Source: a virus
Length of the DNA: 33,652 bases
Reading direction: 5' to 3' (one strand)
Virus record (IMG/VR): IMGVR_UViG_3300035670_000794
Location: 1 to 33,652 of that record
Part shown: in pieces, positions 11,272-29,571 of the stretch
How the letters are laid out: each line of letters starts with the position of its first letter
Numbering within the stretch: the first letter of the stretch is position 1
Program-made: the position numbers and the translations under genes
Notes under the pieces: model-generated
Database searches by the model: none
The model's input: only the letters and a program-made list of their open reading frames with translations
Told to the model about the DNA's origin: nothing

Positions 11272-11793
11272 TTAAGTCATCCATGGTAGCCACATCCATA
11301 AGGCTTGGCTTACCAATAATGCACCTAATGCGCCAACTGCTGTGCTAATATAAAACATAGGCATACTCACAGCAAGAATACTTGCAGTTAATAGAACGAT
11401 TGCAATCTGAAGAATACTACCGCTCCAGGTAAACCACGGAGACTTCAACTTTGCAGCATCACGTTCAGCCTCAAGCGTCTTTGCTTTTTCCATAATATCT
11501 TTCTTGTCCGCATCCATTCTAGCTTTTTCTGCTAAGAATTTTTCTTTATTTTCAGGCTTAGTTGTTTCTTGTGCGTTAATTTCATAAAGGACACCACGAA
11601 CATTCTTTGCTTGATACCATGCCCACATATTGTTTGCTTGAATGGTATTGTTCTGAATCTTGCTACTATTACTGCCACCAAACATGGTATTGATTGCTAA
11701 AAGTGCTGCTAAGAAAACAATAACAAACCCGGCTTTGTCTTTAATTGCTGCTTCACGTTCACTGCGTGACGGTGCTTTTTTCTCTTCTGCCAT
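11272..11793 (-). CDS. DUF4337-like membrane protein
   Basis: 173 residues starting MAEEKKAPSRSEREAA; this start has AAGGAGA in the right place, unlike the longer upstream frame. One membrane span near 25-42 (FVIVFLAALLAINTMF), the segment SSKIQNNTIQANNMWAWYQA, a charged coiled-coil (KARMDADKKDIMEKAKTL), and two C-terminal spans. This is the layout of the bacterial DUF4337 family, whose function is unknown. Expression would come from the leftward half of the palindromic late promoter at 11820-11831. Confidence 0.82.
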   Translation of the reverse strand: MAEEKKAPSRSEREAAIKDKAGFVIVFLAALLAINTMFGGSNSSKIQNNTIQANNMWAWYQAKNVRGVLYEINAQETTKPENKEKFLAEKARMDADKKDIMEKAKTLEAERDAAKLKSPWFTWSGSILQIAIVLLTASILAVSMPMFYISTAVGALGALLVSQALWMWLPWMT

Positions 11794-11819
11794 GGTAATC
11801 TCCTTAGAAAATACTGTAT

Positions 11820-11827
11820 TATTTATA
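11820..11827 (-). promoter_or_regulatory. T4-type late promoter, leftward half of a palindrome
   Basis: On the minus strand the sequence is TATAAATA. The predicted RNA start is near 11814, giving a 21-base leader containing AAGGAGA before the start of the DUF4337-like gene. It shares eight bases with, and is interlocked with, the rightward promoter at 11824-11831. Confidence 0.72.
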
Positions 11828-11831
11828 AATA
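11824..11831 (+). promoter_or_regulatory. T4-type late promoter, rightward half of a palindrome
   Basis: TATAAATA reading rightward. Counting as for T4 late promoters (octamer about -13 to -6), the first RNA base would be 11837, the A of the cyclase ATG, predicting a leaderless message. Together with the minus-strand copy it forms the perfect palindrome TATTTATAAATA. Confidence 0.68.
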
Positions 11832-11836
11832 ATTCT

Positions 11837-13066
11837 ATGGACACAAAACTTGTAACGATAATTTGTTCCGATGTCATTGGCTATAGCCGTCTTATGCAAG
11901 CTGATGAGATAGGAACACTCAAAAAACTGGACGCATGCCGTGCAATCATTGACGTTCTAATTGGCGAAAACAAAGGGCGTTTGTTCAATACTGGCGGTGA
12001 TAATGTTTTGATTGAATTTTCAAGTGCTGTTGATGCTGTAAAATTTAGTATGGCTATGCAAACCAAAATGAGCCAATTAAACAATGGTCTCCGCTGGCGC
12101 ATTGGCATGCATATGGGCGAAGTTTGGATTTATGGTACCAATCTTATGGGCGATGCTGTTAATCTAGCAGCAAGAACTGAAAGTCTTGCTGACTATGGTG
12201 GTATTACCATGACTGATACAGTTTATAGACTTGTCGCCGGTAAAATGCGTGATTTAAAATTTATCAGTAGAGGCGTCCAAGAATTCAAAAATGTTGCGCC
12301 CATGGAAATATGGAGTGTAGAATTTCCTGGTGCTGAACCAAATCCACATTTATCTAAAGCACCTAAGCAACAAAACATACCAACAAAATCACATAAAGAA
12401 TTGATAGCAGCAGTTATGAATGATTCTTCAGCAAGAAATAGAACGTTAATGGATGCACAAAACTTTAAGCGTGACGGCAAGTATGGACCTGCTGTAAGAA
12501 TTCTTATGTGGCGAATCACTAAACAAGATAAGAGTTCAGTAGATGAACTTGTGAATATGGGTATGAAAGATTTAATACCAGTAGAGTTCAAGCAGTATGT
12601 AGATTCAGTCTTCAAAGAATTCTGTACTAAACTTGATAGCGATAGATTATTAAAAATTGCTGACTTACTTGAAAAAATGGAATACAAATCTTCAGCATTT
12701 CAGTTTGTGAAAGCTGCTGGTAAGATTGATGAGACAGCGCAACAACGTTATGCAATGATGGTATTTGAAGATCCACATAGTAGTGACAGTGAAATCAATG
12801 CTATACTAGATGATTTAAAAGAAATGGCAATGAAAAGAAATGTGCCTGCAATGTTAAAGTTAGGTGAGTTTTATGGTAAACTTAATGATAAGAAAAATTC
12901 ATTTCGTTGGCTGTACGCTGCTCGTGCTGAACATAACCAACAAGCGCAGAGAATGCTAGAAGAATTAAATAAAACACTCTCTAAGGCTGATTTCAATAAC
13001 TATAAAACGGATGCTGACGCACTGGTTGACCAAATCAAGTTCATTGATGACAACCGAATGCGTTAA
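11837..13066 (+). CDS. Class III nucleotide cyclase with helical-repeat C-terminus
   Basis: 409 residues. Residues 1-165 form a class III adenylate/guanylate cyclase homology domain: metal-binding Asp12 (CSDVIGYSRLM) and Asp55 (NTGGDNVLIEF), and transition-state Asn109 and Arg113 (GDAVNLAAR), so catalysis looks possible. The base-specifying positions (Lys and Asp in mammalian adenylate cyclases) read as Asn51 and Asn102 by eye, so ATP versus GTP preference is open. The rest is helical; LGEFYGKLNDKKNSFRWLYA resembles a Sel1/TPR-type repeat. No membrane segment. Start chosen at 11837 because Asp12 needs this N-terminus and it lies after the late promoter; no ribosome site is visible. Confidence 0.87.
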   Translation: MDTKLVTIICSDVIGYSRLMQADEIGTLKKLDACRAIIDVLIGENKGRLFNTGGDNVLIEFSSAVDAVKFSMAMQTKMSQLNNGLRWRIGMHMGEVWIYGTNLMGDAVNLAARTESLADYGGITMTDTVYRLVAGKMRDLKFISRGVQEFKNVAPMEIWSVEFPGAEPNPHLSKAPKQQNIPTKSHKELIAAVMNDSSARNRTLMDAQNFKRDGKYGPAVRILMWRITKQDKSSVDELVNMGMKDLIPVEFKQYVDSVFKEFCTKLDSDRLLKIADLLEKMEYKSSAFQFVKAAGKIDETAQQRYAMMVFEDPHSSDSEINAILDDLKEMAMKRNVPAMLKLGEFYGKLNDKKNSFRWLYAARAEHNQQAQRMLEELNKTLSKADFNNYKTDADALVDQIKFIDDNRMR

Positions 13067-13896: not shown

Positions 13897-16287
13897 CTAC
13901 CTCGGTAAGTATTGTTGATTGACCATTTCTTGATGTAGTCTATCACTCGCTAACTGTCTCAATGCTCTAGCATTATCTACGGTTCTTTGCCCTCTATAAA
14001 TCTCTTTTGGAGCATAGAAAGCGGCATCTCTAAGGACCAAACTCGCATACTGATTGAAGCCTGGTGGTTGTGTTGCTATAGATGATATATCAACGTTGCC
14101 TGCTGCTTCATTGTTTTGTGTGTTTCGATTGACTGCTGTGGTTTGTATAGGTTCTTTTCTTTCAGATTCAGCCGTTTGTTTATTTTCTATGATTTCATTG
14201 ATAGGATTTGTTTTATCTGTTGTAAAATTAGATGCCGTCGCTATAGTTTCTACTTGAGTTACTGGTGCAGATATAATTACATCTTGTTTAGGCTGAACTT
14301 GAACGTCTATATTTTGAATTACACTCGCAACGGATTCTGTTATTACTGGTGTTATAACAATAGGTGCAATGGATGTAGTCTGAATAGGCTGTTCAATTTG
14401 AACAGGTTGTTCTTGTTGAGCAAATACTGGTGCTTGTGGTGGTGCAAGTATTTCCTGTTTCTGTTGTTCAGGTTCTATATTCATAGCATCAAGTTTAGGA
14501 AGAACGAATTTTGGTATAACGATTTCTTCTTTACTTTGTTCTGGAGGAACATATAGACTAATTGATGCGGTTATAATAGGTTCAGAAATTATTTGTGCTT
14601 GCTGCGGAGGTAACATTTGCTGAACTTCAATTGCTATAACTTTTGGCAATTCAATCTCTACAATTGGTTGAATAGACTCTTCATTTTGTACGGCGATTGC
14701 AGGAGGTTTAAATTCTGGAATTTCAATTTTAGGTTCTTCAAATTGTACTGTAACTGGTACATTGGAGACTGTTTCAATTTTAATTTCTTCTTGTTTAGGT
14801 GTTTCAGATTGTTGAATTATAACTGGCATAATAATTTGAAATGATAATTCTTGTTGCGCTTGGACTTGTTGAACTTGCACGGGTGGTTGCTGTTGTACTG
14901 ATATAGAACCAGCAGAAAAATCTTGTGCAACTGCTGCCTGTGTATTTTCAATCTGAACAATTGAATTTGTTATAATTTGTTGATTGGATTGTTGTTGCTG
15001 TTGCGATGCAACTGCCACATTTGTAGATGCTTGTGAAGGCAATCTTAATGGTAATGTTTGTATAGCATTACTTGTTACGTTAGCTGGTGTGGCTTGCGAT
15101 GTGTTAGTTGCTGAAATTGTAACGCCTGCTTCAAATGACATTGAAGCAATATTTGATGCTTCAGTCATACTTGACACTGCAATATTTTGTGCAGTAGTAG
15201 TCGCTTGTCTTACCGCTTGATTTTCAAATGTCTGTTGCTGTTGCCTATTTCTTGATATAATGTCTAAAGCATTACTTAGATTAGAACTTTGATTAGTGAT
15301 TGAAGTTTGTTGTTGTGGTCCTGCATTTCTAAGACTCATTGCAAAGGATTCTGCATTTTCTCTTTGAAGTCTAGAGTTGCTTAAGGCAAAATTTACACTT
15401 GATTGTCTATCTGGAGTAATTGTTCGTGAAAAATCACTAGCCAAAGGAACAACTTCATTCATAGTTGTTGTAACGTTCACAGAAGTTTTTGTAGGATCCG
15501 CTACTAAATTTATTACAGAAGTTGTTTCTGTGCTTGTTGCTGTCGCAAATGTATTAATTGTGGATGAGACTATCGGGCTCAGACTATTCATATTACTAAT
15601 AGTTTCATTGAATTTAGGGCATTGTGTGCTGTAAAGAGGATTCACTACGCAAGGATCAGGTTGATAACGCAAACTAAAACTTACATTGGTAACTTCTGGT
15701 CCATATGGACCCATCCAGTAATTATTATCAACGCCATAAAATCCATAAAGAATAGTTCCTAAATCACTACCTCTACGCTCTTTAGTAAAATTTCCCGACC
15801 ATGAAAAGTCAGTCCAATCATGTAAGAAATTTAAACTATATGTCTGTGCTTCAATCCATTGTCCACTTTTACTATACATTTGAACATACGCTTGTAAAGT
15901 GTCTAATCTACCATCGTCCCAGCCATTACCATTTTTACTGCGCCAATTATATTGAAAACCTGTGACCATTAGACCTGTACCAGAATTAGGCAACACATCG
16001 GCTATTGCTCGTGCTTGATATAATTCTGTTGCACTATAACTAAAATTAATTTGCCCGTCAGGTCTTACATAAGGTGTTCCTGGGCTGCAATTAGGATCAC
16101 CACCTTTCCAGCAATCAAGACTGTTAACTGGATATCCGTTGGACCAATTATTAGTGTTTAAATTTCCAGTATAGCTAACTTGTGCAAAAACCGCACCAAA
16201 CAATAGAATAGCACATATAAAAGTGGCTAAGAGAAATCCCTTAGTCCACTTATAGTTATAGTGTTTATGATTAAATTCTTCGGTCAT
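13897..16287 (-). CDS. Large secreted or surface protein, Gln/Pro/Val-rich
   Basis: 796 residues. A hydrophobic signal-anchor (residues about 16-35) ends in AVFAQ, resembling a late Sec cleavage site. Residues 36-210 form a Trp/Tyr/Asn-rich, Cys-containing beta-type domain (YPVNSLDCWKGGDPNCSPG, later DWTDFSWSGNF), possibly adhesive or sugar-binding. Residues about 230-720 are low-complexity Gln/Thr/Val/Pro, with repeated QQQ and PxVIx runs. The last 60 residues (SSIATQPPGFNQYASLVLRD...) look folded again and end in a basic helix. It overlaps the upstream gene by 4 bases (ATGA). Not a recognised tail fibre; a surface function is my inference. Confidence 0.82.
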   Translation of the reverse strand: MTEEFNHKHYNYKWTKGFLLATFICAILLFGAVFAQVSYTGNLNTNNWSNGYPVNSLDCWKGGDPNCSPGTPYVRPDGQINFSYSATELYQARAIADVLPNSGTGLMVTGFQYNWRSKNGNGWDDGRLDTLQAYVQMYSKSGQWIEAQTYSLNFLHDWTDFSWSGNFTKERRGSDLGTILYGFYGVDNNYWMGPYGPEVTNVSFSLRYQPDPCVVNPLYSTQCPKFNETISNMNSLSPIVSSTINTFATATSTETTSVINLVADPTKTSVNVTTTMNEVVPLASDFSRTITPDRQSSVNFALSNSRLQRENAESFAMSLRNAGPQQQTSITNQSSNLSNALDIISRNRQQQQTFENQAVRQATTTAQNIAVSSMTEASNIASMSFEAGVTISATNTSQATPANVTSNAIQTLPLRLPSQASTNVAVASQQQQQSNQQIITNSIVQIENTQAAVAQDFSAGSISVQQQPPVQVQQVQAQQELSFQIIMPVIIQQSETPKQEEIKIETVSNVPVTVQFEEPKIEIPEFKPPAIAVQNEESIQPIVEIELPKVIAIEVQQMLPPQQAQIISEPIITASISLYVPPEQSKEEIVIPKFVLPKLDAMNIEPEQQKQEILAPPQAPVFAQQEQPVQIEQPIQTTSIAPIVITPVITESVASVIQNIDVQVQPKQDVIISAPVTQVETIATASNFTTDKTNPINEIIENKQTAESERKEPIQTTAVNRNTQNNEAAGNVDISSIATQPPGFNQYASLVLRDAAFYAPKEIYRGQRTVDNARALRQLASDRLHQEMVNQQYLPR

Positions 16288-18332
16288 CTGAAGTAACTAG
16301 AATGATGTTTAACGGTTTCCTTTTCACTTGTTTCAGCCACTGTGACATAATCATACTTAGGAATTCTATGTGGATTCTTAGCCCACAATTCTCTTGCCTT
16401 TTCACCAATCTGACCTTCGTATGGGCATGGTGTACCTGCTGCCATCATTGCTTCCCAAACTCTTCTATCTTGGCACATTGCTGCAACTGCTGCAACTTTC
16501 ATACCCATATCATAAAGTGTTTTAGAAAGTTTTAGACGTTCGCAGTTTAAATCTCTACCTGTACCACCTAGAGCCATACCAAACATTTGAGTTTGTATTG
16601 CTCCAGATTGCCCTGTTGTACAAAGATCCTGACCACCACCGCTCATCATTGCAGGAGCAATCGCAGTTGGTGGTGGCTGAATTACACGCTGAGTTATATT
16701 TGTTTCATTGATGTTTCTATTTGTCATGTCACCAGTTTGAATATTCTGATTCACATTGGTGCTATTGTTTGTATTATTATTTGTATTCACGTTATTGCTT
16801 GTACTTGCACTTGTATTTTGATTTACGTTAGTGCTTACGCTAGTGCTATTATTTTGATTCACATTGGTGTTAGTGGATGTGCTTGTATTATTATTTGTAT
16901 TATTGCTAGTTGTATTATTCTGATTATTATTATTGTATGTCATTGTACCAGAATTTATATTGTTGTTTGTATTCGTATTTGTATTGGTGCTTGTACTATT
17001 ATTGACATTTTCATTTCTCTGTGTGCCAACATTCACATTTAAACTGGTAGATTTGACGGTGCTGTCACTGGTGCTTTGATTTATGTTAGTGTTTGTGCTG
17101 ACACTGTTGTTCGTGTTTACGTTATTATTTGTTGACGTGTTTGTAGATGTATTCACGTTCGTATTATTATAATTCATAGTACCAGAATTAACATTGTTAT
17201 TTGTATTCACGTTGGTACTTACACTTCTACTGTCCATTGTGCTGACATTCGTATTCATATTATTATTGGTGCTAGCACTTACACTGTTATTTGTATTAAT
17301 ATTGGTATTGGTACTTGTAGCAGTTGACTGATTCAAGTTTGTGTTTACATTTGTACTATTGTTTACATTCACATTTGTATTGGTACTAGTGGACGCACTT
17401 TGATTTATATTTGTGTTTACACTGGTGTTATTATTAGTGTTTACATTATTTGATGTGGACTGATTTACGTTTGTGTTTAAACTGGTGCTACGCATTGTGC
17501 TGTCATTGACATTGGTGCTTGTTGACGTTGACTGATTTACGTTTGTGTTCACATTTGTATTATTAGATGTCGATTGGTTTACGTTAGTATTTAAATTTGT
17601 ATTATTGCTGGTACTGGTATTCACATTATTATTATTTGCAGTGCTTGTCATATTCGACACATTGTTATTATTGAATGTCTGAGTGCCAGAATTAATATTC
17701 ACATTGGTGTTTGTATTCGTGTTGCTGCTGGTGCTATTACTTACATTATTATTATTAAATGTTTGTGTACCAGAATTCACGTTATAATTTGTATTCGTAC
17801 TTGTGGTTGAATTATTATTGTTGTATGTCATCTCACCAGAATTGATGTTATTATTTGTATTCACGTTGGTATTATTTGAAGTAGAACTGCTGGTATTAGT
17901 ATTTTGATTTATATTTGTCATAGTACCAGAATTGACATTGTTATTATTGTATGTCATGGTACCGCTGTTCACGTTGTTATTGTTATATGTGACACTACCA
18001 GAATTTATATTTTCATTGATGTTTGTGACTGTACCACTTTGAATGTTATTGTTTGTATTTACATTTGTGGAAGTAGACGTAGAAGTGCTGCTATTTTGGT
18101 TAACGTTTGTATTAACCGATGTGCTGTTTACAGTGCTTGTATTTGTATTTGTGCTGGTACTTGTTGAAGTATTATTGGTATTTACTGTGGACGTGCTTGT
18201 TGACGTTGAATTGGTATCAACTAATGACTTTGAATCGTAAGTTCCTTGATTGATGAGTGTTTGTGCATTCGCATGGTTCAGAACGAAAATCATAACAAAA
18301 AGGGCGGATAGCACCTTTCTGAATGTTTCCAT
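16284..18332 (-). CDS. Secreted protein with about 500 residues of Asn/Thr/Ser/Val repeats
   Basis: 682 residues, AGGAG before the ATG at 18332. Sec signal peptide METFRKVLSALFVMIFVLN, cleaved after ANA. Residues about 40-546 are degenerate tandem repeats almost wholly of Asn, Thr, Ser, Val and Gly (NSGTMTYNNNNV and NTNVNQSTS units). The C-terminal 136 residues are a normal folded domain with four Cys (DLC, NCERLK, MCQDRR, PCPYEG) and the run GMKVAAVAAMCQDRRVWEAM, which I recall at the C-terminus of other long phage repeat proteins. The repeats may form a beta-solenoid or a flexible stalk. First gene of the leftward envelope operon. Confidence 0.87.
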   Translation of the reverse strand: METFRKVLSALFVMIFVLNHANAQTLINQGTYDSKSLVDTNSTSTSTSTVNTNNTSTSTSTNTNTSTVNSTSVNTNVNQNSSTSTSTSTNVNTNNNIQSGTVTNINENINSGSVTYNNNNVNSGTMTYNNNNVNSGTMTNINQNTNTSSSTSNNTNVNTNNNINSGEMTYNNNNSTTSTNTNYNVNSGTQTFNNNNVSNSTSSNTNTNTNVNINSGTQTFNNNNVSNMTSTANNNNVNTSTSNNTNLNTNVNQSTSNNTNVNTNVNQSTSTSTNVNDSTMRSTSLNTNVNQSTSNNVNTNNNTSVNTNINQSASTSTNTNVNVNNSTNVNTNLNQSTATSTNTNINTNNSVSASTNNNMNTNVSTMDSRSVSTNVNTNNNVNSGTMNYNNTNVNTSTNTSTNNNVNTNNSVSTNTNINQSTSDSTVKSTSLNVNVGTQRNENVNNSTSTNTNTNTNNNINSGTMTYNNNNQNNTTSNNTNNNTSTSTNTNVNQNNSTSVSTNVNQNTSASTSNNVNTNNNTNNSTNVNQNIQTGDMTNRNINETNITQRVIQPPPTAIAPAMMSGGGQDLCTTGQSGAIQTQMFGMALGGTGRDLNCERLKLSKTLYDMGMKVAAVAAMCQDRRVWEAMMAAGTPCPYEGQIGEKARELWAKNPHRIPKYDYVTVAETSEKETVKHHSSYFR
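16695..18215 (-). repeat. Degenerate tandem repeats coding for Asn/Thr/Ser/Val units
   Basis: About 1.5 kb of in-frame imperfect repeats inside the 682-residue gene. Units such as VNSGTMTYNNNN recur with variants (GTQTFNNNN, GEMTYNNNN, GSVTYNNNN), interspersed with NTNVNQSTS-type units. At DNA level the copies differ mostly at synonymous or conservative positions, so this looks like an old or selected repeat rather than recent slippage. Such a tract can vary in length by recombination. Confidence 0.88.
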
Positions 18333-24648: not shown

Positions 24649-24759
24649 ATGAACAAACTATTCAACAAACCCACAGGCATTTTAATTTATCCAGCTGATT
24701 GCACGGCTGAGAATTGCTCACGTACATTTTTCTGGACAGGAGCAATTATGAGGGGTTGA
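24649..24759 (+). CDS. Possible 36-residue leader peptide
   Basis: MNKLFNKPTGILIYPADCTA and 16 more residues, ending MRG-stop. No Shine-Dalgarno site; the ATG lies two bases after the predicted late RNA start. Its stop codon TGA (24757-24759) falls exactly in the first of three segments that can form competing hairpins (24751-24811), which is where a leader-peptide stop would control an attenuator. Small and without homology evidence, so it may be spurious. Confidence 0.4.
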   Translation: MNKLFNKPTGILIYPADCTAENCSRTFFWTGAIMRG

Positions 24760-24784
24760 CAAAAGAAACAAATTGTCGTAAAAT
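24756..24784 (+). promoter_or_regulatory. Sigma70-type promoter TTGACA-17-TAAAAT
   Basis: Perfect -35 and good -10 with ideal spacing. The predicted RNA start (about 24791) lies within the 5' arm of the terminator hairpin at 24786-24811, so RNA made here could not form that terminator, while read-through RNA could. Confidence 0.72.
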
Positions 24785-24785
24785 C

Positions 24786-24820
24786 AACCCCTAGCCTCAA
24801 AACTAGGGGTTTTGTTTTCT
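24786..24820 (+). terminator. Intrinsic terminator, possibly part of an attenuator
   Basis: 9-bp stem AACCCCTAG/CTAGGGGTT with 8-base loop, followed by TTGTTTT. The 5' arm can pair instead with AGGGGTTGA at 24751-24759 (9 bp, perfect), which would prevent the terminator. See the finding. Confidence 0.75.
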
Positions 24821-24840: not shown

Positions 24841-24869
24841 TTGACAAGCAGTACAAAGTAGCGTAGAAT
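24841..24869 (+). promoter_or_regulatory. Strong sigma70-type promoter of the tRNA cluster
   Basis: TTGACA, 17 bases, TAGAAT; predicted RNA start near 24876, about 67 bases before tRNA-Ile. No ORF of note follows, so this is the main candidate promoter for the stable RNAs. Confidence 0.8.
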
Positions 24870-24942: not shown

Positions 24943-25017
24943 CCCGGATTAGCTCAGTGGTAGAGCAGCGTCTTGATAAGGCGAAGGCGGATGGATCGTT
25001 ACCATCATCCGGGACCA
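24943..25017 (+). tRNA. tRNA-Ile (GAT)
   Basis: Acceptor CCCGGAT/ATCCGGG with A73 and encoded CCA, D stem GCTC/GAGC, loop TTGATAA, T stem GATGG/CCATC. The T-loop reads ATCGTTA rather than TTCGAAT, and the 27-43 pair is a mismatch. Its CCA is the start of the hairpin element at 25015. Confidence 0.85.
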
Positions 25018-25081
25018 TATTGAAGTGCATTGCCGAACAGACAAATGGTGATGAACCGATGAGTAGTGCATTTCAATATGG
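25015..25081 (+). repeat. Covarying hairpin element, copy 1
   Basis: Arms 25015-25031 (CCATATTGAAGTGCATT) and 25065-25081 (AGTGCATTTCAATATGG) pair over 17 positions with two G-U pairs. It starts on the CCA of tRNA-Ile. Compared with copies 2 and 3, positions 12 and 13 of the stem change on both arms together (T-A for C-G, G-C for A-T). Confidence 0.85.
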
Positions 25082-25277
25082 TGAGTAGGAAGTAACCGTG
25101 AGCCGATTTGGTGAGGTTGCAGACTAAAGATCAACTTCGACCGCGTAGATAGTCCGGACTATCGTTTGAAACGGAAGATGAATCCATCCCCTGCCCTACT
25201 GATCATAAGTCCGAAGTGAAATGAAGGTCAAAGTTTTTCGAGACTCAATTGGCAGTGATTTTCATTTTCGGACACCA
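25080..25277 (+). ncRNA. Structured RNA of unknown type, CCA-ended, RNA X1
   Basis: A stretch without a credible ORF that begins GGTGAGTAGG and ends in CCA at the next hairpin element, so it sits where a tRNA would. Visible helices: GAAGT (25089) with ACTTC (25134), enclosing AACC with GGTT; the perfect palindrome 25148-25163 (GATAGTCCGGACTATC); GATG/CATC near 25183; and a closing helix GTCCGAA (25209) with TTCGGAC (25267-25273) around AGTTT-TTCG-AGACT. I could not fold it as a tRNA: no 7-base anticodon loop or T-arm is found. Boundaries are approximate. Compare the unexplained stable RNAs in the T4 tRNA cluster. Confidence 0.5.
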
Positions 25278-25368
25278 TATTAAAGCACATTAGACTGAGC
25301 CGAAAGCAAGAAAGATAATTTCACTTGGTTAAAACGGTTGACTCTGAAACTAGTGTGTTTCAATATGG
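25275..25368 (+). repeat. Covarying hairpin element, copy 2
   Basis: Arms 25275-25293 (CCATATTAAAGCACATTAG) and 25350-25368 (CTAGTGTGTTTCAATATGG): 19 positions with one A-C mismatch and two G-U pairs. The loop is longer than in copies 1 and 3 (56 bases). It starts on the CCA of RNA X1. Confidence 0.85.
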
Positions 25369-25493
25369 TAGCAATACCAAAACACGTGGCCATCAGCGTG
25401 TATAAAGGCGGCGAGTCTTAAACGAAGTCGGTGGCGGGATAGGTAGAACAGTTACTCCGAAAGTGTAACGCCGGATTTTGTAACCGGCAACCA
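25367..25493 (+). ncRNA. Structured RNA of unknown type, CCA-ended, RNA X2
   Basis: Second non-tRNA unit between hairpin copies 2 and 3. Helices seen: GGTA-GCAA-TACC (25367-25378, GNRA tetraloop), CACG/CGTG (25383 and 25397), GTTAC/GTAAC (25451 and 25465, 9-base loop), GCCGG/CCGGC (25470 and 25484, 9-base loop), then AACCA. The stretch GGTGGCGGGATAGGTAGAACA resembles a Leu-type D-arm, and tRNA-Leu is otherwise missing, but no acceptor stem or normal anticodon arm can be drawn. It may be a degenerate tRNA or another RNA class. Confidence 0.45.
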
Positions 25494-25561
25494 TATTGAA
25501 GCACATTTTATCAGGGCAGTATTGTTCAGCGGTTTAGAGCCGTAAGTGTGTTTCAATATGG
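25491..25561 (+). repeat. Covarying hairpin element, copy 3
   Basis: Arms 25491-25507 (CCATATTGAAGCACATT) and 25545-25561 (AGTGTGTTTCAATATGG) pair at all 17 positions including two G-U pairs. It starts on the CCA of RNA X2 and its last two bases are the first two of tRNA-Asp. Confidence 0.85.
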
Positions 25562-25634
25562 TTCCATAGTATATCGGCGAGTATAGCGCCCTGTCACGGC
25601 GCAGGAACGGGTTCGAATCCCGTTGGGACCGCCA
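25560..25634 (+). tRNA. tRNA-Asp (GTC)
   Basis: Acceptor GGTTCCA/TGGGACC with G73 and CCA, anticodon loop CTGTCAC in stem GCGCC/GGCGC, T-arm GGGTTCGAATCCC. Its 5' two bases are part of the 3' arm of hairpin copy 3. Confidence 0.95.
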
Positions 25635-25641
25635 AGTCAAT

Positions 25642-25717
25642 GGTGATTGTAGCACAATGGCAGTGCCACGGATTGTGATTCCGTAAAGTGTGAGTTCGAA
25701 TCTCATCAATCACCCCA
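25642..25717 (+). tRNA. tRNA-His (GTG)
   Basis: Loop with GTG, acceptor GTGATTG/CAATCAC preceded by an encoded G-1 opposite C73, the usual identity element of tRNA-His; CCA encoded. T-arm GAGTTCGAATCTC. Confidence 0.94.
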
Positions 25718-25724
25718 AAGTTTT

Positions 25725-25798
25725 GCCTTCGTCGGTTAGTGGTAAACCAACGGTTTTGTAATCCGTGACTGTCTGTTCGATTCAGACCGAAGGCACCA
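25725..25798 (+). tRNA. tRNA-Thr (TGT)
   Basis: Acceptor GCCTTCG/CGAAGGC, A73, CCA; D stem GGTT/AACC; loop TTTGTAA in stem ACGGT/TCCGT with one T-T mismatch next to the loop; T-arm with TTCGATT. Confidence 0.92.
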
Positions 25799-25805
25799 AA
25801 ATTAT

Positions 25806-25882
25806 ACACCGTTCGTCTAGCGGTCTAGGACATTGCCCTTTCAAGGCAAAGATCACGGGTTCAAATCCCGTACGGTGTGCCA
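25806..25882 (+). tRNA. tRNA-Glu (TTC)
   Basis: Acceptor ACACCGT/ACGGTGT, G73, CCA; anticodon stem TTGCC/GGCAA with loop CTTTCAA; T-arm CGGGTTCAAATCCCG. Confidence 0.94.
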
Positions 25883-25889
25883 GATTATT

Positions 25890-25966
25890 CCGTCATTAGT
25901 TCAGCAGAATAGAACACTTGACTACGGATCAAGAGGTCGGAGGTTTGAATCCTTCATGACGGGCCA
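25890..25966 (+). tRNA. tRNA-Arg (ACG)
   Basis: Acceptor CCGTCAT/ATGACGG, G73, CCA; anticodon stem CTTGA/TCAAG with loop CTACGGA. A34 needs conversion to inosine by host TadA to read CGU/CGC/CGA. Confidence 0.93.
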
Positions 25967-25971
25967 GAATT

Positions 25972-26047
25972 GCCGCTTTAGCTGATGTGGTCATAGCAGG
26001 CGCCTGAAGAGCGTCGGAACGTGGTTCGATTCCACGAGGCGGCACCA
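25972..26047 (+). tRNA. tRNA-Phe (GAA)
   Basis: Acceptor GCCGCTT/AGGCGGC with one G-U pair, A73, CCA; anticodon stem GGCGC/GCGTC, loop CTGAAGA; T-arm GTGGTTCGATTCCAC. Confidence 0.93.
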
Positions 26048-26049
26048 AT

Positions 26050-26123
26050 GCGGGTATAACTTAGTGGTAAAGTAACTGGCTTTTAACCAGTAAACCAGAG
26101 TTCGATTCTCTGTGCCCGTACCA
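26050..26123 (+). tRNA. tRNA-Lys (TTT)
   Basis: Acceptor GCGGGTA/TGCCCGT (two G-U pairs, including 1-72), A73, CCA; anticodon stem ACTGG/CCAGT with loop CTTTTAA; T-arm AGAGTTCGATTCTCT. Confidence 0.93.
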
Positions 26124-26129
26124 GATTAT

Positions 26130-26205
26130 TCCGAAATAGCTCAGTCGGTAGAGCGACGGACTGTTAATCCGTAGGTCCCTGGTTCGAACCCAGGTTTCGG
26201 AGCCA
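26130..26205 (+). tRNA. tRNA-Asn (GTT)
   Basis: Acceptor TCCGAAA/TTTCGGA, G73, CCA; D stem GCTC/GAGC; anticodon stem ACGGA/TCCGT with loop CTGTTAA; T-arm CTGGTTCGAACCCAG. Very regular cloverleaf. Confidence 0.96.
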
Positions 26206-26212
26206 ATTCATT

Positions 26213-26300
26213 GGGTGCTGTTCCACTCGGGTGACTGTAAATCACTTGCCTTAATATGAGTGGTGGTGGCAGTTAGGTTCGATTCCTTCAGTACCCACCA
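26213..26300 (+). tRNA. tRNA-Tyr (GTA), long variable arm
   Basis: Acceptor GGGTGCT/AGTACCC, A73, CCA; loop CTGTAAA; 88 bases with the extended variable arm usual for bacterial tRNA-Tyr. Confidence 0.92.
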
Positions 26301-26304
26301 ATAT

Positions 26305-26381
26305 CTCGGTGTAGTTCCAATTGGCAGAACGGTGGTCTCCAAAACCATATGTTGGCGGTTCGAATCCGTCCACCGAGGCCA
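26305..26381 (+). tRNA. tRNA-Trp (CCA)
   Basis: Acceptor CTCGGTG/CACCGAG, G73, CCA; anticodon loop CTCCAAA with stem GTGGT/ACCAT (one wobble); T-arm GCGGTTCGAATCCGT. Confidence 0.93.
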
Positions 26382-26432
26382 TATATTTTCAATCTTGCGC
26401 CGAAAGCGTAATACAATTAATGGAATATCAAA

Positions 26433-27002
26433 ATGAGTAATTTTATTTTTATTCAGAATGATGTTGATGTATCAAAAATTCTTCAACAGGTTCTAAACAA
26501 TCCAAACGATTGGAATGCAATTAAAAATTATCCAAATGTAGGTGGTGAAACGAATCCTTATGGTTTCATGCCTTTAGTTATGGCAGTTGTTGCCAATCCT
26601 GAAGATAATCCTAAGAATTCGGAGAGACAGAAAAACACTCCACTACATGACAAATATACTGAGATACATAAATTTCTAAGAAGTTATAAAATTAAGAAAA
26701 CTTCTAGGGCTGCATTCTTTAGATTGTATGTAGGCGATAGTGTAGGAGAACATATTGATGATGGTTCTTATTACCTTACTAGAGATAGATATCATTTATG
26801 CATTCAAGGAAGTTATTTATATAGTGTCGGCGGTGAAGTGAAACAAATTGAACCAGGTATGTTCTTTTGGTTTGATAATAAAAAATCACATTGGGCTTAT
26901 AGTAACGGTAAAAAAGACAGGCTCACTTTTGTTTTTGATTTGCCTCATTCACCAAATAATCCGCAGCATAGAATCCCCGGCCCTACGCCGGTTAGCGAGT
27001 AG
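26433..27002 (+). CDS. Aspartyl/asparaginyl beta-hydroxylase-like 2-oxoglutarate oxygenase
   Basis: 189 residues, Fe(II)/2-oxoglutarate family. Metal ligands by eye: His107 and Asp109 (GEHIDDG), distal His153 (KSHWAYSNG), and Arg163 (KDRLTFVFD) for 2-oxoglutarate; RYHLCIQGS at 119-127 is a further family mark. The substrate is unknown. The gene is placed among the tRNAs, so a substrate in the translation apparatus is worth considering, but that is inference. The last 15 or so residues (Pro/Gly-rich) may be read-in from adjacent non-coding sequence. No strong ribosome site is visible. Confidence 0.85.
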   Translation: MSNFIFIQNDVDVSKILQQVLNNPNDWNAIKNYPNVGGETNPYGFMPLVMAVVANPEDNPKNSERQKNTPLHDKYTEIHKFLRSYKIKKTSRAAFFRLYVGDSVGEHIDDGSYYLTRDRYHLCIQGSYLYSVGGEVKQIEPGMFFWFDNKKSHWAYSNGKKDRLTFVFDLPHSPNNPQHRIPGPTPVSE

Positions 27003-27173
27003 GCGCAATAAGACTAGCGTTAGAAGTCTTAGGTTTCTTTTTCTCCTCCCTCCGGGCCATTCATCCGGTAGGGTAAAACAAAAGATACGACCGTGTCATC
27101 GGATAAACAAGACACTGGACAGGGCAACAACTCAAATCGGGGCTTCTGGGAAGAAGTAGCCGACCTAATTTAC
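27003..27173 (+). other. Structured non-coding stretch inside the tRNA cluster
   Basis: 171 bases between the hydroxylase stop and tRNA-Ala without a convincing ORF. Visible hairpins: AAGACT/AGTCTT followed by TTTCTTTTT (terminator-like, near 27011-27045), CCCTCCGG/CCGGTAGGG near 27050-27075, and GTGTC/GACAC near 27093-27115. Could be a terminator plus a structured RNA or a decayed tRNA region. Confidence 0.45.
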
Positions 27174-27248
27174 GGGGGGTTAGTGATAACGGTAGCACAG
27201 GGGCTTTGCAAGTCTTTAGTAGGAGTTCGATTCTCCTATCCTCCACCA
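27174..27248 (+). tRNA. tRNA-Ala (TGC)
   Basis: Acceptor GGGGGGT/ATCCTCC places a G-U pair at 3-70, the alanine identity element; A73 and CCA; loop TTTGCAA. The anticodon stem GGGGC/GTCTT is mostly wobble pairs, so it is weak. T-arm GGAGTTCGATTCTCC. Confidence 0.85.
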
Positions 27249-27254
27249 AATCAT

Positions 27255-27332
27255 GTGTCGGTGGCAGAGTGGTCCAATGCAACGGTCTGCAAAACCGTAA
27301 AGTCGCCAGTTCGAATCTGGCCCGGCACTCCA
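27255..27332 (+). tRNA. tRNA-Cys (GCA)
   Basis: Acceptor GTGTCGG/CCGGCAC, T73 (cysteine discriminator), CCA; anticodon stem ACGGT/ACCGT with loop CTGCAAA; T-arm CCAGTTCGAATCTGG. Confidence 0.93.
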
Positions 27333-27344
27333 GAAAATCAATAT

Positions 27345-27417
27345 CTCGGATTGGTGAAATGGTATCATTCGTGCTTTGGGAGCATGAGGCGCAAGTTCGA
27401 TTCTTGCATCCGAGACC
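27345..27417 (+). tRNA. tRNA-Pro (TGG)
   Basis: Acceptor CTCGGAT/ATCCGAG, A73, CCA; anticodon stem CGTGC/GCATG with loop TTTGGGA; T-arm CAAGTTCGATTCTTG. Confidence 0.9.
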
Positions 27418-27423
27418 AAATAT

Positions 27424-27494
27424 TGCGGTGAGTCAGGTGAGAAGAGTGTCTCATAAGCATTTCTTAGGTGGTTCGAATCCACCCGCCGCAACCA
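27424..27494 (+). tRNA. tRNA with CAT anticodon (Met or Ile2), short D-arm
   Basis: Acceptor TGCGGTG/CGCCGCA, A73, CCA; loop CTCATAA in a wobble-rich stem AGTGT/GCATT; T-arm GTGGTTCGAATCCAC. Only 71 bases, with a poorly paired D-arm. Second CAT tRNA of the window. Confidence 0.82.
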
Positions 27495-27499
27495 GAAAT

Positions 27500-27576
27500 G
27501 CGGGTATGGTGTTTAACGGTTAGCATGTCAGTCTTCCAAACTGAAGGTCCGAGTTCAAATCTCGATGCCCGCTCCA
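27500..27576 (+). tRNA. tRNA-Gly (TCC)
   Basis: Acceptor GCGGGTA/TGCCCGC, T73, CCA; anticodon stem TCAGT/ACTGA with loop CTTCCAA; T-arm CGAGTTCAAATCTCG. Confidence 0.94.
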
Positions 27577-27583
27577 ATAGTAA

Positions 27584-27658
27584 GCCTTGTTAGTTTAATG
27601 GTAAAACGCTGCCCTTACAAGACAGATAGCGGTGGTTCGATTCCATCACAAGGCACCA
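27584..27658 (+). tRNA. tRNA-Val (TAC)
   Basis: Acceptor GCCTTGT/ACAAGGC, A73, CCA; loop CTTACAA in stem CTGCC/GACAG with one mismatch; T-arm GTGGTTCGATTCCAT. Confidence 0.92.
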
Positions 27659-27668
27659 GAAGGAACAT

Positions 27669-27744
27669 ATCACCGTGGTCTAATGGATAAGGCAACGCTC
27701 TTCTAAAGCGTCCGATGGGGGTTCGAATCCCTCCGGTGGTGCCA
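27669..27744 (+). tRNA. tRNA-Arg (TCT)
   Basis: Acceptor ATCACCG/CGGTGGT, G73, CCA; anticodon stem ACGCT/AGCGT with loop CTTCTAA; T-arm GGGGTTCGAATCCCT. Reads AGA/AGG, codons usually frequent in AT-rich phages. Confidence 0.94.
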
Positions 27745-27769
27745 CAATTAATTTAACAAGGAGATTATC

Positions 27770-28333
27770 ATGGCCGCAACATGGCTCATATCAGACACGC
27801 ATTTCGGTCATGATAAAACATGTACCGTTTTTAAACGTGATGACGGTTCACCTCTTAGACCATTCAAAGATGCTGAAGAAATGGACGAAGAAATGGTCAA
27901 GCGTTGGAACGAACGAGTAAGTAAGAACGACAAAGTATATCATTTGGGCGATGTTGTCATTGCAAGAAAGTCGTTATCAATATTACACCGTCTAAATGGT
28001 GACAAAGTTCTTATCAAAGGTAACCATGATATCTTTAAACTGAATGATTACACAAACCACTTTAGAGATATTCGTGGATACCATGTAATGGCTGGGCTTA
28101 TATTCAGTCATGTGCCTGTTCATGCTGATAGCATTGAAAGATTTGGATGTAATGTTCACGGGCATCTACACCATAGAAGAGTTTTGATTAATGGTAAAAT
28201 TGATCCAAGATACTTCAATGTCAGTGTAGAATGCATAGACTTTGCACCAATTCTTTTAGAGGATCTTAGAACAAAAATCCTTGAGCAAGGTGGTGATGTT
28301 GTAATGAAAAAGTCCAGGCATGATGTTGACTGA
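27770..28333 (+). CDS. Calcineurin-like metallophosphoesterase
   Basis: 187 residues with AAGGAG before the ATG. All motifs of the binuclear metallophosphoesterase family are visible: Asp9/His11 (SDTHFGH), Asp61 (HLGDVV), Asn85-His86 (GNHD), His114 (FSHVPVH), His130/His132 (VHGHLHH). Small phage and bacterial members of this type act on phosphodiesters or phosphoproteins. Flanked directly by tRNA genes; the stop codon is followed at once by the first base of tRNA-Gln, so an RNA-repair or RNA-end role is conceivable but unproven. Confidence 0.9.
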   Translation: MAATWLISDTHFGHDKTCTVFKRDDGSPLRPFKDAEEMDEEMVKRWNERVSKNDKVYHLGDVVIARKSLSILHRLNGDKVLIKGNHDIFKLNDYTNHFRDIRGYHVMAGLIFSHVPVHADSIERFGCNVHGHLHHRRVLINGKIDPRYFNVSVECIDFAPILLEDLRTKILEQGGDVVMKKSRHDVD

Positions 28334-28409
28334 TGGGGATTAGCCAAGATGGTAAGGCATCGGATTTTGATTCCGACATGCACAGGTTCGAATCCTGTAT
28401 CCCCTACCA
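28334..28409 (+). tRNA. tRNA-Gln (TTG)
   Basis: TGGGGAT/ATCCCCT with 1-72 unpaired (T-T), in keeping with the weak first pair used by glutaminyl-tRNA synthetase; A73, CCA; loop TTTTGAT; T-arm CAGGTTCGAATCCTG. Abuts the stop codon of the upstream gene. Confidence 0.93.
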
Positions 28410-28496
28410 ACTATCAATTCAATAGAAATAATTCATGAAAAATGTAGCACTTATAGTTATACATAATGTTACGATTAACTATTTACGGAGGACGAA

Positions 28497-28946
28497 ATGT
28501 CTCTAACGTTGAAAAATTTGGAGAGCGCATTAGCAGGTGAATCAATGGCTCACATTAAGTATAGGTATTTTGCTAAGATTGCACGAGATGAAGGCTTTGA
28601 AGATGTAGCAAAGCATTTTGAACATACAGCGGATCAAGAAATCAAACATGCGTGGGGTCATCTTGAATTGATTCTAGGCAAGATTGATACACGACAAGCA
28701 TTAGAAAAAGCAATAGAAGGTGAGACTTACGAATTTACCACAATGTATCCAGGATTTGTAGCAGATGCAATTAAAGAATCTGAAGACTTTGCAGTTCATG
28801 AATTCCGCAATAACATTGCAGAGAGTGCTGAACATGCACAAGAGTTTAAGGATCGGTTAGCATTAGCAGAGAAACGATTTGCTGCGCTACAAAAAGTAGA
28901 ACAGAAACATGCTGCTGCATATAAACAAGTTCTGGAGAATCTATAA
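28497..28946 (+). CDS. Rubrerythrin-type diiron protein
   Basis: 149 residues, four-helix-bundle ferritin-like family. Candidate iron ligands are Glu15 (LAGESMAH), Glu48 and His51 (DQEIKHAW), Glu76/Glu79 (GETYEF) and Glu109 (IAESAEHAQEF). Rubrerythrins reduce hydrogen peroxide. The usual C-terminal rubredoxin domain is absent and instead encoded by the next gene, overlapping by 1 base (TAATG). GGAGG lies before the start. Role in the phage probably oxidative-stress protection. Confidence 0.93.
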   Translation: MSLTLKNLESALAGESMAHIKYRYFAKIARDEGFEDVAKHFEHTADQEIKHAWGHLELILGKIDTRQALEKAIEGETYEFTTMYPGFVADAIKESEDFAVHEFRNNIAESAEHAQEFKDRLALAEKRFAALQKVEQKHAAAYKQVLENL

Positions 28947-29089
28947 TGGAAAAAGAAAAAGATTACGTATGTATTGTTTGTGGTCATCGTCTTGCTGAAT
29001 CAGACTACCTTTCTCTACCAGAAGAAGTTGGTTGCCCAGAATGTGGTGTTTCAAAGCATGATTACTACTTAGAAGATTTTGGAGATTGA
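28946..29089 (+). CDS. Rubredoxin-like protein, partner of the rubrerythrin
   Basis: 47 residues with two Cys pairs, YVCIVCGH and GCPECGVSKHDY, spaced as in the iron site of a rubredoxin domain. The start ATG overlaps the rubrerythrin TAA as TAATG, so translation is coupled. In most bacteria this domain is fused to the C-terminus of rubrerythrin; here it is a separate chain that would donate electrons to the diiron centre. Confidence 0.88.
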   Translation: MEKEKDYVCIVCGHRLAESDYLSLPEEVGCPECGVSKHDYYLEDFGD

Positions 29090-29097
29090 TATATACT

Positions 29098-29191
29098 GGA
29101 AGAGTTAGCCGAGTTTGGTCTAGCGGCAGCAGTCTTGAAAACTGAAGGCTCAGAAATGGGTGTGTGAGTTCGAATCTCACCTCTTCCGCCA
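29098..29191 (+). tRNA. tRNA-Ser (TGA)
   Basis: 94 bases with long variable arm; acceptor GGAAGAG/CTCTTCC, G73, CCA; loop CTTGAAA; T-arm TGAGTTCGAATCTCA. Starts 8 bases after the rubredoxin stop. Confidence 0.95.
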
Positions 29192-29210
29192 ACATCACTA
29201 AGGAGATATC

Positions 29211-29414
29211 ATGGCACCAAGAAAACGAGTAGAAAAACCTAAACCTCTAAAAGAGTATCCTACAAAAACTACAACAACGGTTGTAGATAAATTAAAGCAT
29301 CCTGATGGCACCATTGAGGGTGAGTATAGTAGAAGTGTCTATGTCAATAATGAATTGGTCAGTTTTGATATCGATTGGGATAAATTAAAAGACTACATGA
29401 AGAAGGTTGGCTGA
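29211..29414 (+). CDS. Small basic protein whose 3' end overlaps a tRNA
   Basis: 67 residues, AAGGAG before the ATG. Lys/Thr/Pro-rich N-terminus (MAPRKRVEKPKPLKEYPTKT) and a short folded-looking end (YVNNELVSFDIDWDKLKDYM). The last 14 bases, including the stop, are also the first bases of tRNA-Ser(GCT), so tRNA maturation would cut the message at its stop codon. Function unknown. Confidence 0.7.
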   Translation: MAPRKRVEKPKPLKEYPTKTTTTVVDKLKHPDGTIEGEYSRSVYVNNELVSFDIDWDKLKDYMKKVG

Positions 29415-29492
29415 GTGGTCGAAAGCAGCGGTTTGCTAAACCGTAGGCTGGCGAAAGCTGGCCCATGGGTTCGAATCCCATACCTTCTGCCA
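29401..29492 (+). tRNA. tRNA-Ser (GCT)
   Basis: 92 bases with long variable arm; acceptor AGAAGGT/ACCTTCT, G73, CCA; loop TTGCTAA in stem GCGGT/ACCGT; T-arm TGGGTTCGAATCCCA. Overlaps the end of the preceding CDS. Confidence 0.94.
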
Positions 29493-29497
29493 GAAAT

Positions 29498-29571
29498 GCG
29501 GGTATGATGTAATGGTAACCTACAACTTTGCCAAAGTTGATTTGCGAGTTCGATTCTCGCTACCCGCTCCA
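29498..29571 (+). tRNA. tRNA-Gly (GCC)
   Basis: Acceptor GCGGGTA/TACCCGC, T73, CCA; anticodon stem CAACT/AGTTG with loop TTGCCAA; T-arm CGAGTTCGATTCTCG. Last tRNA of the cluster. Confidence 0.95.

What the first reader, a model, noticed from the sequence alone, without database searches (positions are those of the whole stretch)
25080..25493. Two CCA-ended structured RNAs that are not ordinary tRNAs
RNA X1 (about 198 bases) and RNA X2 (about 127 bases) take the place of tRNAs between hairpin elements and end in CCA, but neither folds as a cloverleaf by eye. X1 has nested helices, a 16-base palindrome and a TTCG-capped stem; X2 has a GNRA tetraloop hairpin and a stretch like a Leu D-arm. tRNA-Leu is the one amino acid family I cannot find as a clear gene, apart from any that is outside the window. 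They recall the unexplained stable RNAs within the T4 tRNA cluster. They may be novel small RNAs, tRNAs with insertions, or decayed genes.
Basis: partly seen in the sequence, partly recalled or inferred. Interest (0 to 1): 0.7.

Follow-up and report, generated by a model that had tools for sequence, protein, structure and literature searches.

The report
Hairpin-delimited RNA cassettes in phage tRNA clusters
The two odd RNAs are not tRNAs: they are interchangeable noncoding RNA modules, joined by a previously unrecognised and widespread family of long hairpins, that uncultured T4-like phages carry between their tRNA genes in ever-changing combinations.

Summary
Three long hairpins (25014-25082, 25274-25369, 25490-25562) share one stem, CCATATTGAAGYRCATT / AGTGYRTTTCAATATGG, with unrelated heads. 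X1 is two modules (X1a, X1b); X2 is one. The "CCA ends" are the first bases of the next hairpin's 5' arm: X2 loses its CCA in a close relative, and across the family CC is kept in 135/135 hairpins that follow tRNAs but only 133/182 that follow other RNAs. Scanning IMG/VR for the paired arms gave about 150 contigs. A relaxed search of the fetched loci gave 317 distinct hairpins: 306 near tRNAs, 273:5 on the tRNA strand, usually starting exactly at the tRNA's CCA. The stems covary strongly (186 of 195 double changes complementary, against 29 when arms are re-dealt). X1a and X2 recur at 92-98% identity in different orders and with different hairpins, X2 even in a 400-kb phage. None is in Rfam, in 50,697 phage genomes or in the literature I could search. 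Most likely these are cassettes of small stable RNAs processed out of a polycistronic tRNA transcript through the common stem. The processing and the modules' function are inferred.

The parts
24841..24869 (+). promoter-like site (TTGACA-17-TAGAAT) upstream of the tRNA/RNA cluster; a terminator-like hairpin lies just before it at 24786-24811
   Evidence: consensus match only
24943..25017 (+). tRNA-Ile (GAT); its CCA (25015-25017) is the first three bases of hairpin 1
25014..25082 (+). hairpin 1 (head family h0): arms 25015-25031 / 25065-25081
   Evidence: compensatory T-A to G-C change in L004/L005
25082..25206 (+). module X1a: structured RNA with basal helix AGTAGG/CCTACT and the 25148-25163 palindrome; GG at 25080-25081 is shared with hairpin 1
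   Evidence: 15 loci; basal helix differs but still pairs in L087/L245; swapped for an unrelated module in L004
25207..25274 (+). module X1b: 68-nt hairpin GTCCGAA...TTCGGAC
   Evidence: 7 loci, 96-97% identical
25274..25369 (+). hairpin 2 (head family h51): arms 25275-25291 / 25352-25368; head replaced by a different one in L004/L005
25369..25490 (+). module X2: GNRA-capped 5' hairpin (25367-25378, shares GG with hairpin 2) and 3' hairpin GCCGG...CCGGC
   Evidence: 14 loci at 96-98% plus one at 80%, 19 contigs by exact 30-mer; flanks switch abruptly at the hairpin arms
25490..25562 (+). hairpin 3 (head family h1): arms 25491-25507 / 25545-25561
   Evidence: compensatory C-G to T-A change in L004
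25560..25634 (+). tRNA-Asp (GTC); its first two bases GG are the last two of hairpin 3
26972..27168 (+). further structured noncoding module ('M5') of the same cassette world, upstream of tRNA-Ala; homologues in 20 loci, directly upstream of X2 in L200, L238 and L240
   Evidence: no Rfam match; no match in phage genomes

Best explanation
X1a, X1b and X2 are small noncoding RNA modules in a polycistronic tRNA operon of a T4-like phage. They are separated from the tRNAs and from each other by members of a widespread family of long hairpins. Each hairpin has a standard 17-bp stem that begins at the 3' end (the CCA, if it is a tRNA) of the upstream RNA and ends at the 5' G of the downstream RNA, and it carries one of many exchangeable structured heads. 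Shown: the family, its position and strand, RNA-level base-pair selection, and cassette-like shuffling of modules and heads. Inferred: the operon is transcribed as one precursor; the common stem is recognised (probably by a double-strand-specific endonuclease or a stem-binding protein) and cut at its base; this frees the upstream 3' end and the downstream 5' end in one step, and the X modules and the heads are released as small stable RNAs. Recombination between the near-identical arms explains how phages exchange modules.
For: Family: 62 + 94 IMG/VR stretches with both 11-base arms at the right spacing, where 0.11 is expected per 10 Gb. Position: starts at the CCA in 121 of 133 abutting cases; tRNA nearby for 306 of 317; in 19 large records (100-400 kb) every record has only one or two pattern sites, most of them beside tRNA matches. 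Strand: 273 with the nearest tRNA, 5 against; G-U pairs read on the tRNA strand 502, A-C 54, so selection acts on the sense RNA rather than on a DNA cruciform. Pairing: 186 of 195 double changes complementary, 29 (max 43) when arms are re-dealt; pairing is within one hairpin (74 of 76 double changes) and not across a module (20 of 35). Stem bases 3, 4 and 10 are near-invariant while 7-9, 12 and 14 covary, also among 191 hairpins that do not match the scan pattern. Heads: 194 clusters; family h2 has 5 pairs with two-sided compensatory change in 7 sequences. Cassettes: module orders differ between phages and X2 flanks switch at the arms. A promoter-like site precedes the cluster.
Against: There are no transcript data. 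Neither cleavage nor a nuclease has been shown. The stem (median 18 bp) is short for an efficient RNase III site, and its near-invariant bases are not what the largely sequence-independent RNase III needs. A pure processing signal would not need heads of 17-145 nt with conserved folds. Some modules abut tRNAs or each other without a hairpin (X1a-X1b here; M5-X2 in L200), so the hairpin is not obligatory for release.
Confidence: 0.5

Rival explanations
1. RNA payload model: the common stem is only a handle (for stability or protein binding). The variable heads and X modules are the point: decoys, guides or inhibitors against host RNA-targeting defences or toxins, exchanged between phages as the arms race shifts.
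For: 194 head clusters among 317 hairpins, conserved folds within head families, near-identical X2 in a 400-kb T4-like phage and small relatives, 29 heads with a T-loop-like motif. Phage RNA mimicry of defence RNAs is established (PMC10651486, PMC3475682, listed).
Against: No target is known and no head matches a known RNA in 11 loci scanned. It does not by itself explain why the stem starts exactly at the CCA.
Confidence: 0.25
2. Selfish or recombinational element: the hairpins are mobile or homology-anchored insertions at tRNA 3' ends, spread by recombination, with no benefit as RNA.
For: The same head follows different tRNAs in different phages. X1a, X2 and heads shuffle. Close relatives have 1, 2 or 3 hairpins at one site (L007, L008, window).
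Against: Strand bias 273:5, wobble pairs of the sense strand and strong covariation point to selection on the transcript. No mobility gene was looked for or seen beside the hairpins.
Confidence: 0.15
3. Self-cleaving ribozymes next to tRNA ends, like the theta ribozymes of gut phages.
For: Same niche: RNA elements abutting phage tRNA 3' ends, proposed to process them (PMC10879173).
Against: An HDV-like descriptor finds none in X1, X2, M5 or the three hairpins, and 1 of 317 hairpins (3 after shuffling). Rfam ribozyme models do not match. Theta-linked tRNAs mostly lack an encoded CCA; these encode it.
Confidence: 0.04
4. tRNAs with introns or decayed tRNA genes.
For: A Leu D-arm-like stretch in X2, and absence of tRNA-Leu from the window. 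X1a contains AGACTAAA...GATAGTCC, reminiscent of the group I intron P7 strands.
Against: No tRNA or group I hit at lax thresholds. X1b and X2 coexist with two tRNA-Leu genes in L004. Near-identity across phages argues against decay. Intron-bearing tRNAs in relatives are found easily.
Confidence: 0.03

Closest known systems
GOLLD and ROOL RNAs (Rfam RF02032 and relatives; PMC12286853)
   Same: Noncoding RNAs of unknown function in phages and prophages, often near tRNA islands; one GOLLD lies in the same cluster as these hairpins in L102
   Different: GOLLD and ROOL are single large RNAs; here there are many small modules with a shared 17-bp stem; no Rfam match to X1, X2, M5 or the hairpins
Theta ribozymes (PMC10879173)
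   Same: RNA elements abutting phage tRNA 3' ends, proposed to help 3'-end maturation
   Different: HDV-like double pseudoknot, gut phages, tRNAs without CCA; the hairpins have an uninterrupted long stem and no HDV-like topology
T4 stable RNAs within the tRNA cluster (species 1 and 2; from my own knowledge)
   Same: Small non-tRNA RNAs inside a T4-like tRNA operon
   Different: Not compared by sequence here; no match of X1 or X2 in 50,697 phage genomes, a collection with hundreds of coliphages and T4-like phages
Cassette arrays with folded repeats (integron attC sites; CRISPR and TIGR arrays)
   Same: Conserved stem or repeat with variable payload; shuffled order
   Different: No recombinase or effector shown; G-U pairing and strand bias point to RNA, not folded DNA; the variable part is inside the hairpin as well as between hairpins; tied to tRNA ends

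Membership tests
tRNA (RF00005) | cloverleaf covariance match | tested here: not met
   no hit in X1 or X2
tRNA (RF00005) | conserved 3' CCA of X1/X2 | tested here: not met
   X2 lacks it in L004/L005; CC lost in 49 of 182 hairpins after non-tRNA modules versus 0 of 135 after tRNAs
Group I intron (RF00028) | covariance match including P3-P8 core | tested here: not met
   no hit for X1 at E up to 10, while tRNA introns in L084 and L216 score 53-69 bits
Theta / HDV-like ribozyme | nested double pseudoknot with catalytic C in J4/2 | tested here: not met
   own descriptor with synthetic positive control; Rfam negative
Theta / HDV-like ribozyme | Mg-dependent self-cleavage | not testable with these tools
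   wet experiment
GOLLD / ROOL | match to the Rfam model | tested here: not met
   window scan
T4 species 1 / species 2 stable RNAs | sequence or structure homology | tested here: inconclusive
   X1 and X2 have no blastn match in 50,697 phage records; no structural model of the T4 RNAs was available
Rho-independent terminator | GC-rich stem followed by a T run | tested here: not met
   the family stem is followed by GG and the next RNA; the one scan hit in the region, 25529-25543, is the small internal stem of hairpin 3's head
RNase III substrate | cleavage within a helix of about 20 bp or more | not testable with these tools
   median continuous helix 18 bp; cleavage needs an experiment

The most novel reading that the evidence does not exclude
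T4-like phages known so far only from metagenomes carry an exchangeable library of small RNA effectors, displayed on a common hairpin handle and expressed and matured together with tRNAs. It would be an RNA analogue of a defence/counter-defence gene-cassette array, with dozens to hundreds of unknown RNA domains.
Probability: 0.3. Interest if true: 0.95.

Novelty: categorically new. Interest (0 to 1): 0.82.

Why it matters
Noncoding RNAs in phage tRNA clusters have been an open puzzle for decades. Here a simple sequence signature exposes about 150 contigs, 317 distinct hairpins, 194 head clusters and several inter-hairpin RNA families absent from Rfam and from cultured-phage genomes. The signature gives an immediate handle: it predicts where the RNAs begin and end, which bases must pair, and which modules are worth testing for function. 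If the heads act on host translation or RNA-based defence, this would be a large, rapidly exchanged reservoir of phage RNA effectors.

Tried and rejected
Rfam at lax thresholds: only snoRNA-like chance hits. Group I intron core in X1a: suggestive strands but no model hit. HDV-like/theta descriptor: negative. Stems enclosing X1 or X2 (3' arm of one hairpin with 5' arm of the next, as in rRNA processing stems): less covariation than within a hairpin. Cultured phages: no match to X1, X2 or M5, and only chance-level matches to a typical hairpin. Bacterial genomes: 3 pattern hits, about the 3 expected by chance from the rate; not examined further. Nearest cultured relatives by flap endonuclease (Melnitz, DLP_6): the annotated stretches read show one tRNA plus a tmRNA, and no tRNA, respectively, with no tRNA cluster. 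Literature: searches for the arm sequence and for hairpins or stable RNAs in phage tRNA clusters found nothing describing this; only open-access papers are held.

Full report
**What is there.** The window is a 33,652-base IMG/VR fragment. It comes from a T4-like phage: its flap endonuclease is 56% identical to that of Methylophilales phage Melnitz (Kyanoviridae), and 13 of 40 contigs carrying the same hairpins encode the T4-type capsid protein gp23. The finding lies at the head of a tRNA cluster (ARAGORN tRNAs at 24943-29571), behind a good sigma-70-like promoter match (24841-24869). Between tRNA-Ile and tRNA-Asp lie three long hairpins, hp1, hp2 and hp3, whose arms are copies of one sequence (CCATATTGAAGYRCATT ... 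AGTGYRTTTCAATATGG). X1 and X2 fill the two gaps. No Rfam family matches.

**X1 is two modules and 'CCA' belongs to the hairpin.** Two close relatives (L004, L005) keep hp1, X1b, X2 and hp3 at 93-98% identity. They carry an unrelated 52-nt hairpin module in place of X1a and a different head in hp2. In hp1 a T-A pair has become G-C and in hp3 a C-G pair has become T-A, so the stems are selected as stems. In these relatives X2 ends ATCA, not ACCA; the hp3 stem tolerates this as U-G. Across the family, hairpins directly after tRNAs keep CC in 135 of 135 cases, while after other modules 49 of 182 have lost it, often with the partner changed too (p = 7e-14). So CCA is needed for the tRNAs and is not an end signal of the X RNAs. 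L004 and L005 also carry two tRNA-Leu genes, so X1 and X2 do not replace tRNA-Leu.

**A widespread hairpin family.** The exact split pattern CCATATTGAAG-N36..66-[C/T]TTCAATATGG occurs in 62 and 94 stretches of IMG/VR, against an expectation of about 0.1 per 10 Gb. In 84,980 prokaryote genomes a near-identical pattern occurs 3 times, about as expected by chance. A relaxed finder on the fetched loci gave 317 distinct hairpins, with a shuffle control of 1 in 120 loci. Of these, 306 lie within 3 kb of tRNAs. Of those abutting an upstream tRNA, 121 of 133 start exactly at its CCA, and 34 end two bases into the next tRNA. In 19 large records (100-400 kb, all with tRNAs) each record has one or two pattern sites, most of them beside tRNA matches.

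**Selection acts on the sense RNA.** Orientation judged from the arms alone agrees with the nearest tRNA in 273 cases and disagrees in 5. Read on the tRNA strand, stems hold 502 G-U and only 54 A-C oppositions. With pairs chosen by arm similarity only, 97% of positions pair and 186 of 195 double changes are complementary; re-dealing the 3' arms gives on average 29 (maximum 43 of 200 trials). The same test favours pairing inside one hairpin (74 of 76) over pairing across a module (20 of 35). Among 191 hairpins that do not match the scan pattern, bases 3, 4 and 10 are nearly invariant and positions 7-9, 12 and 14 vary with compensation. That fits both an RNA helix and recognition of particular bases.

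**Heads and modules are exchangeable RNA domains.** The 317 heads fall into 194 clusters. Family h2 (9 loci) keeps the core GAGTTGATCGCC...ACGGTG around a helix with compensatory changes. Unique inter-element segments fall into 109 clusters. X1a is in 15 loci, X2 in 14 and X1b in 7; exact scans find X2 in 19 contigs and X1a in 15. Orders differ: window Ile-h0-X1a-X1b-h51-X2-h1-Asp; L004 Ile-h0-M3-X1b-h23-X2-h1-Asp; L145 Gln-h42-X2-h5-X1a-h1-Phe; L150 (a 400-kb phage) Gln-h0-X2-h24; L193 Leu-h38-X2-h5-X1a-h12; L234 Asp-h52-X1a-X1b-h51-h23-X2. Reading outward from X2, sequence identity stops at the hairpin arms. A further module, M5 (26972-27168 in the window), has 20 loci and sits directly upstream of X2 in three of them.

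**Mechanism.** Shown: position, strand, pairing and shuffling. Inferred: one transcript; cutting at the stem base to free a CCA end upstream and a 5' G downstream; release of modules and heads as small RNAs; exchange by recombination at the arms. The long conserved heads suggest that they are more than spacers; a payload role against host defences is the leading rival and compatible addition. Theta/HDV-like cleavage was tested and not found (comparison with PMC10879173). GOLLD and ROOL (PMC12286853) are the nearest known residents of the niche.

**Limits.** No transcript data exist for these contigs. Loci are a seeded sample, not a census, and some come from the same phage populations, so counts use distinct sequences. 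The literature held is open-access only. Cultured phages lack these sequences, so experiments will need synthetic constructs or new isolates.

Noticed in passing
window 26972-27168 (+): Another unassigned structured RNA ('M5', GGACAGGGYAAC...GGGGCT core) upstream of tRNA-Ala; 20 loci; no Rfam or phage-genome match.
   Followed up: partly
window 26212-26300 (+): A tRNA-Tyr (GTA)-like gene with CCA that both ARAGORN and Rfam miss.
   Followed up: no
L084:13185-13378(-), L216:7381-7572(-) and 12747-12981(-); similar cores in L148 and L180: Small group I introns inside tRNA genes, including tRNA-Leu, in the same phage clusters.
   Followed up: partly
L216:1952-2275(-): A phage-encoded tmRNA (alpha and permuted models both match) in a contig with nine of these hairpins.
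   Followed up: no
L102:7302-7765(+): A GOLLD RNA in the same cluster as nine of the hairpins.
   Followed up: no
hairpin heads, e.g. L187, L206, L216, L230: 29 of 317 heads hold a T-loop-like motif (GGTTCRANTCC), some with D-arm-like hairpins, as if a tRNA-like fold sat on a very long acceptor stem.
   Followed up: no
window 11660-13066 (+): ORF with a class III adenylate/guanylate cyclase domain (PF00211, 7e-11), unusual in a T4-like phage.
   Followed up: no
window 13897-18332 (-): Two large minus-strand ORFs, one Gln-rich (796 aa) and one almost entirely Asn/Ser/Thr repeats (682 aa), without Pfam matches.
   Followed up: no
window 24756-24811 (+): A strong promoter match runs straight into a terminator-like hairpin just before the cluster promoter.
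   Followed up: no
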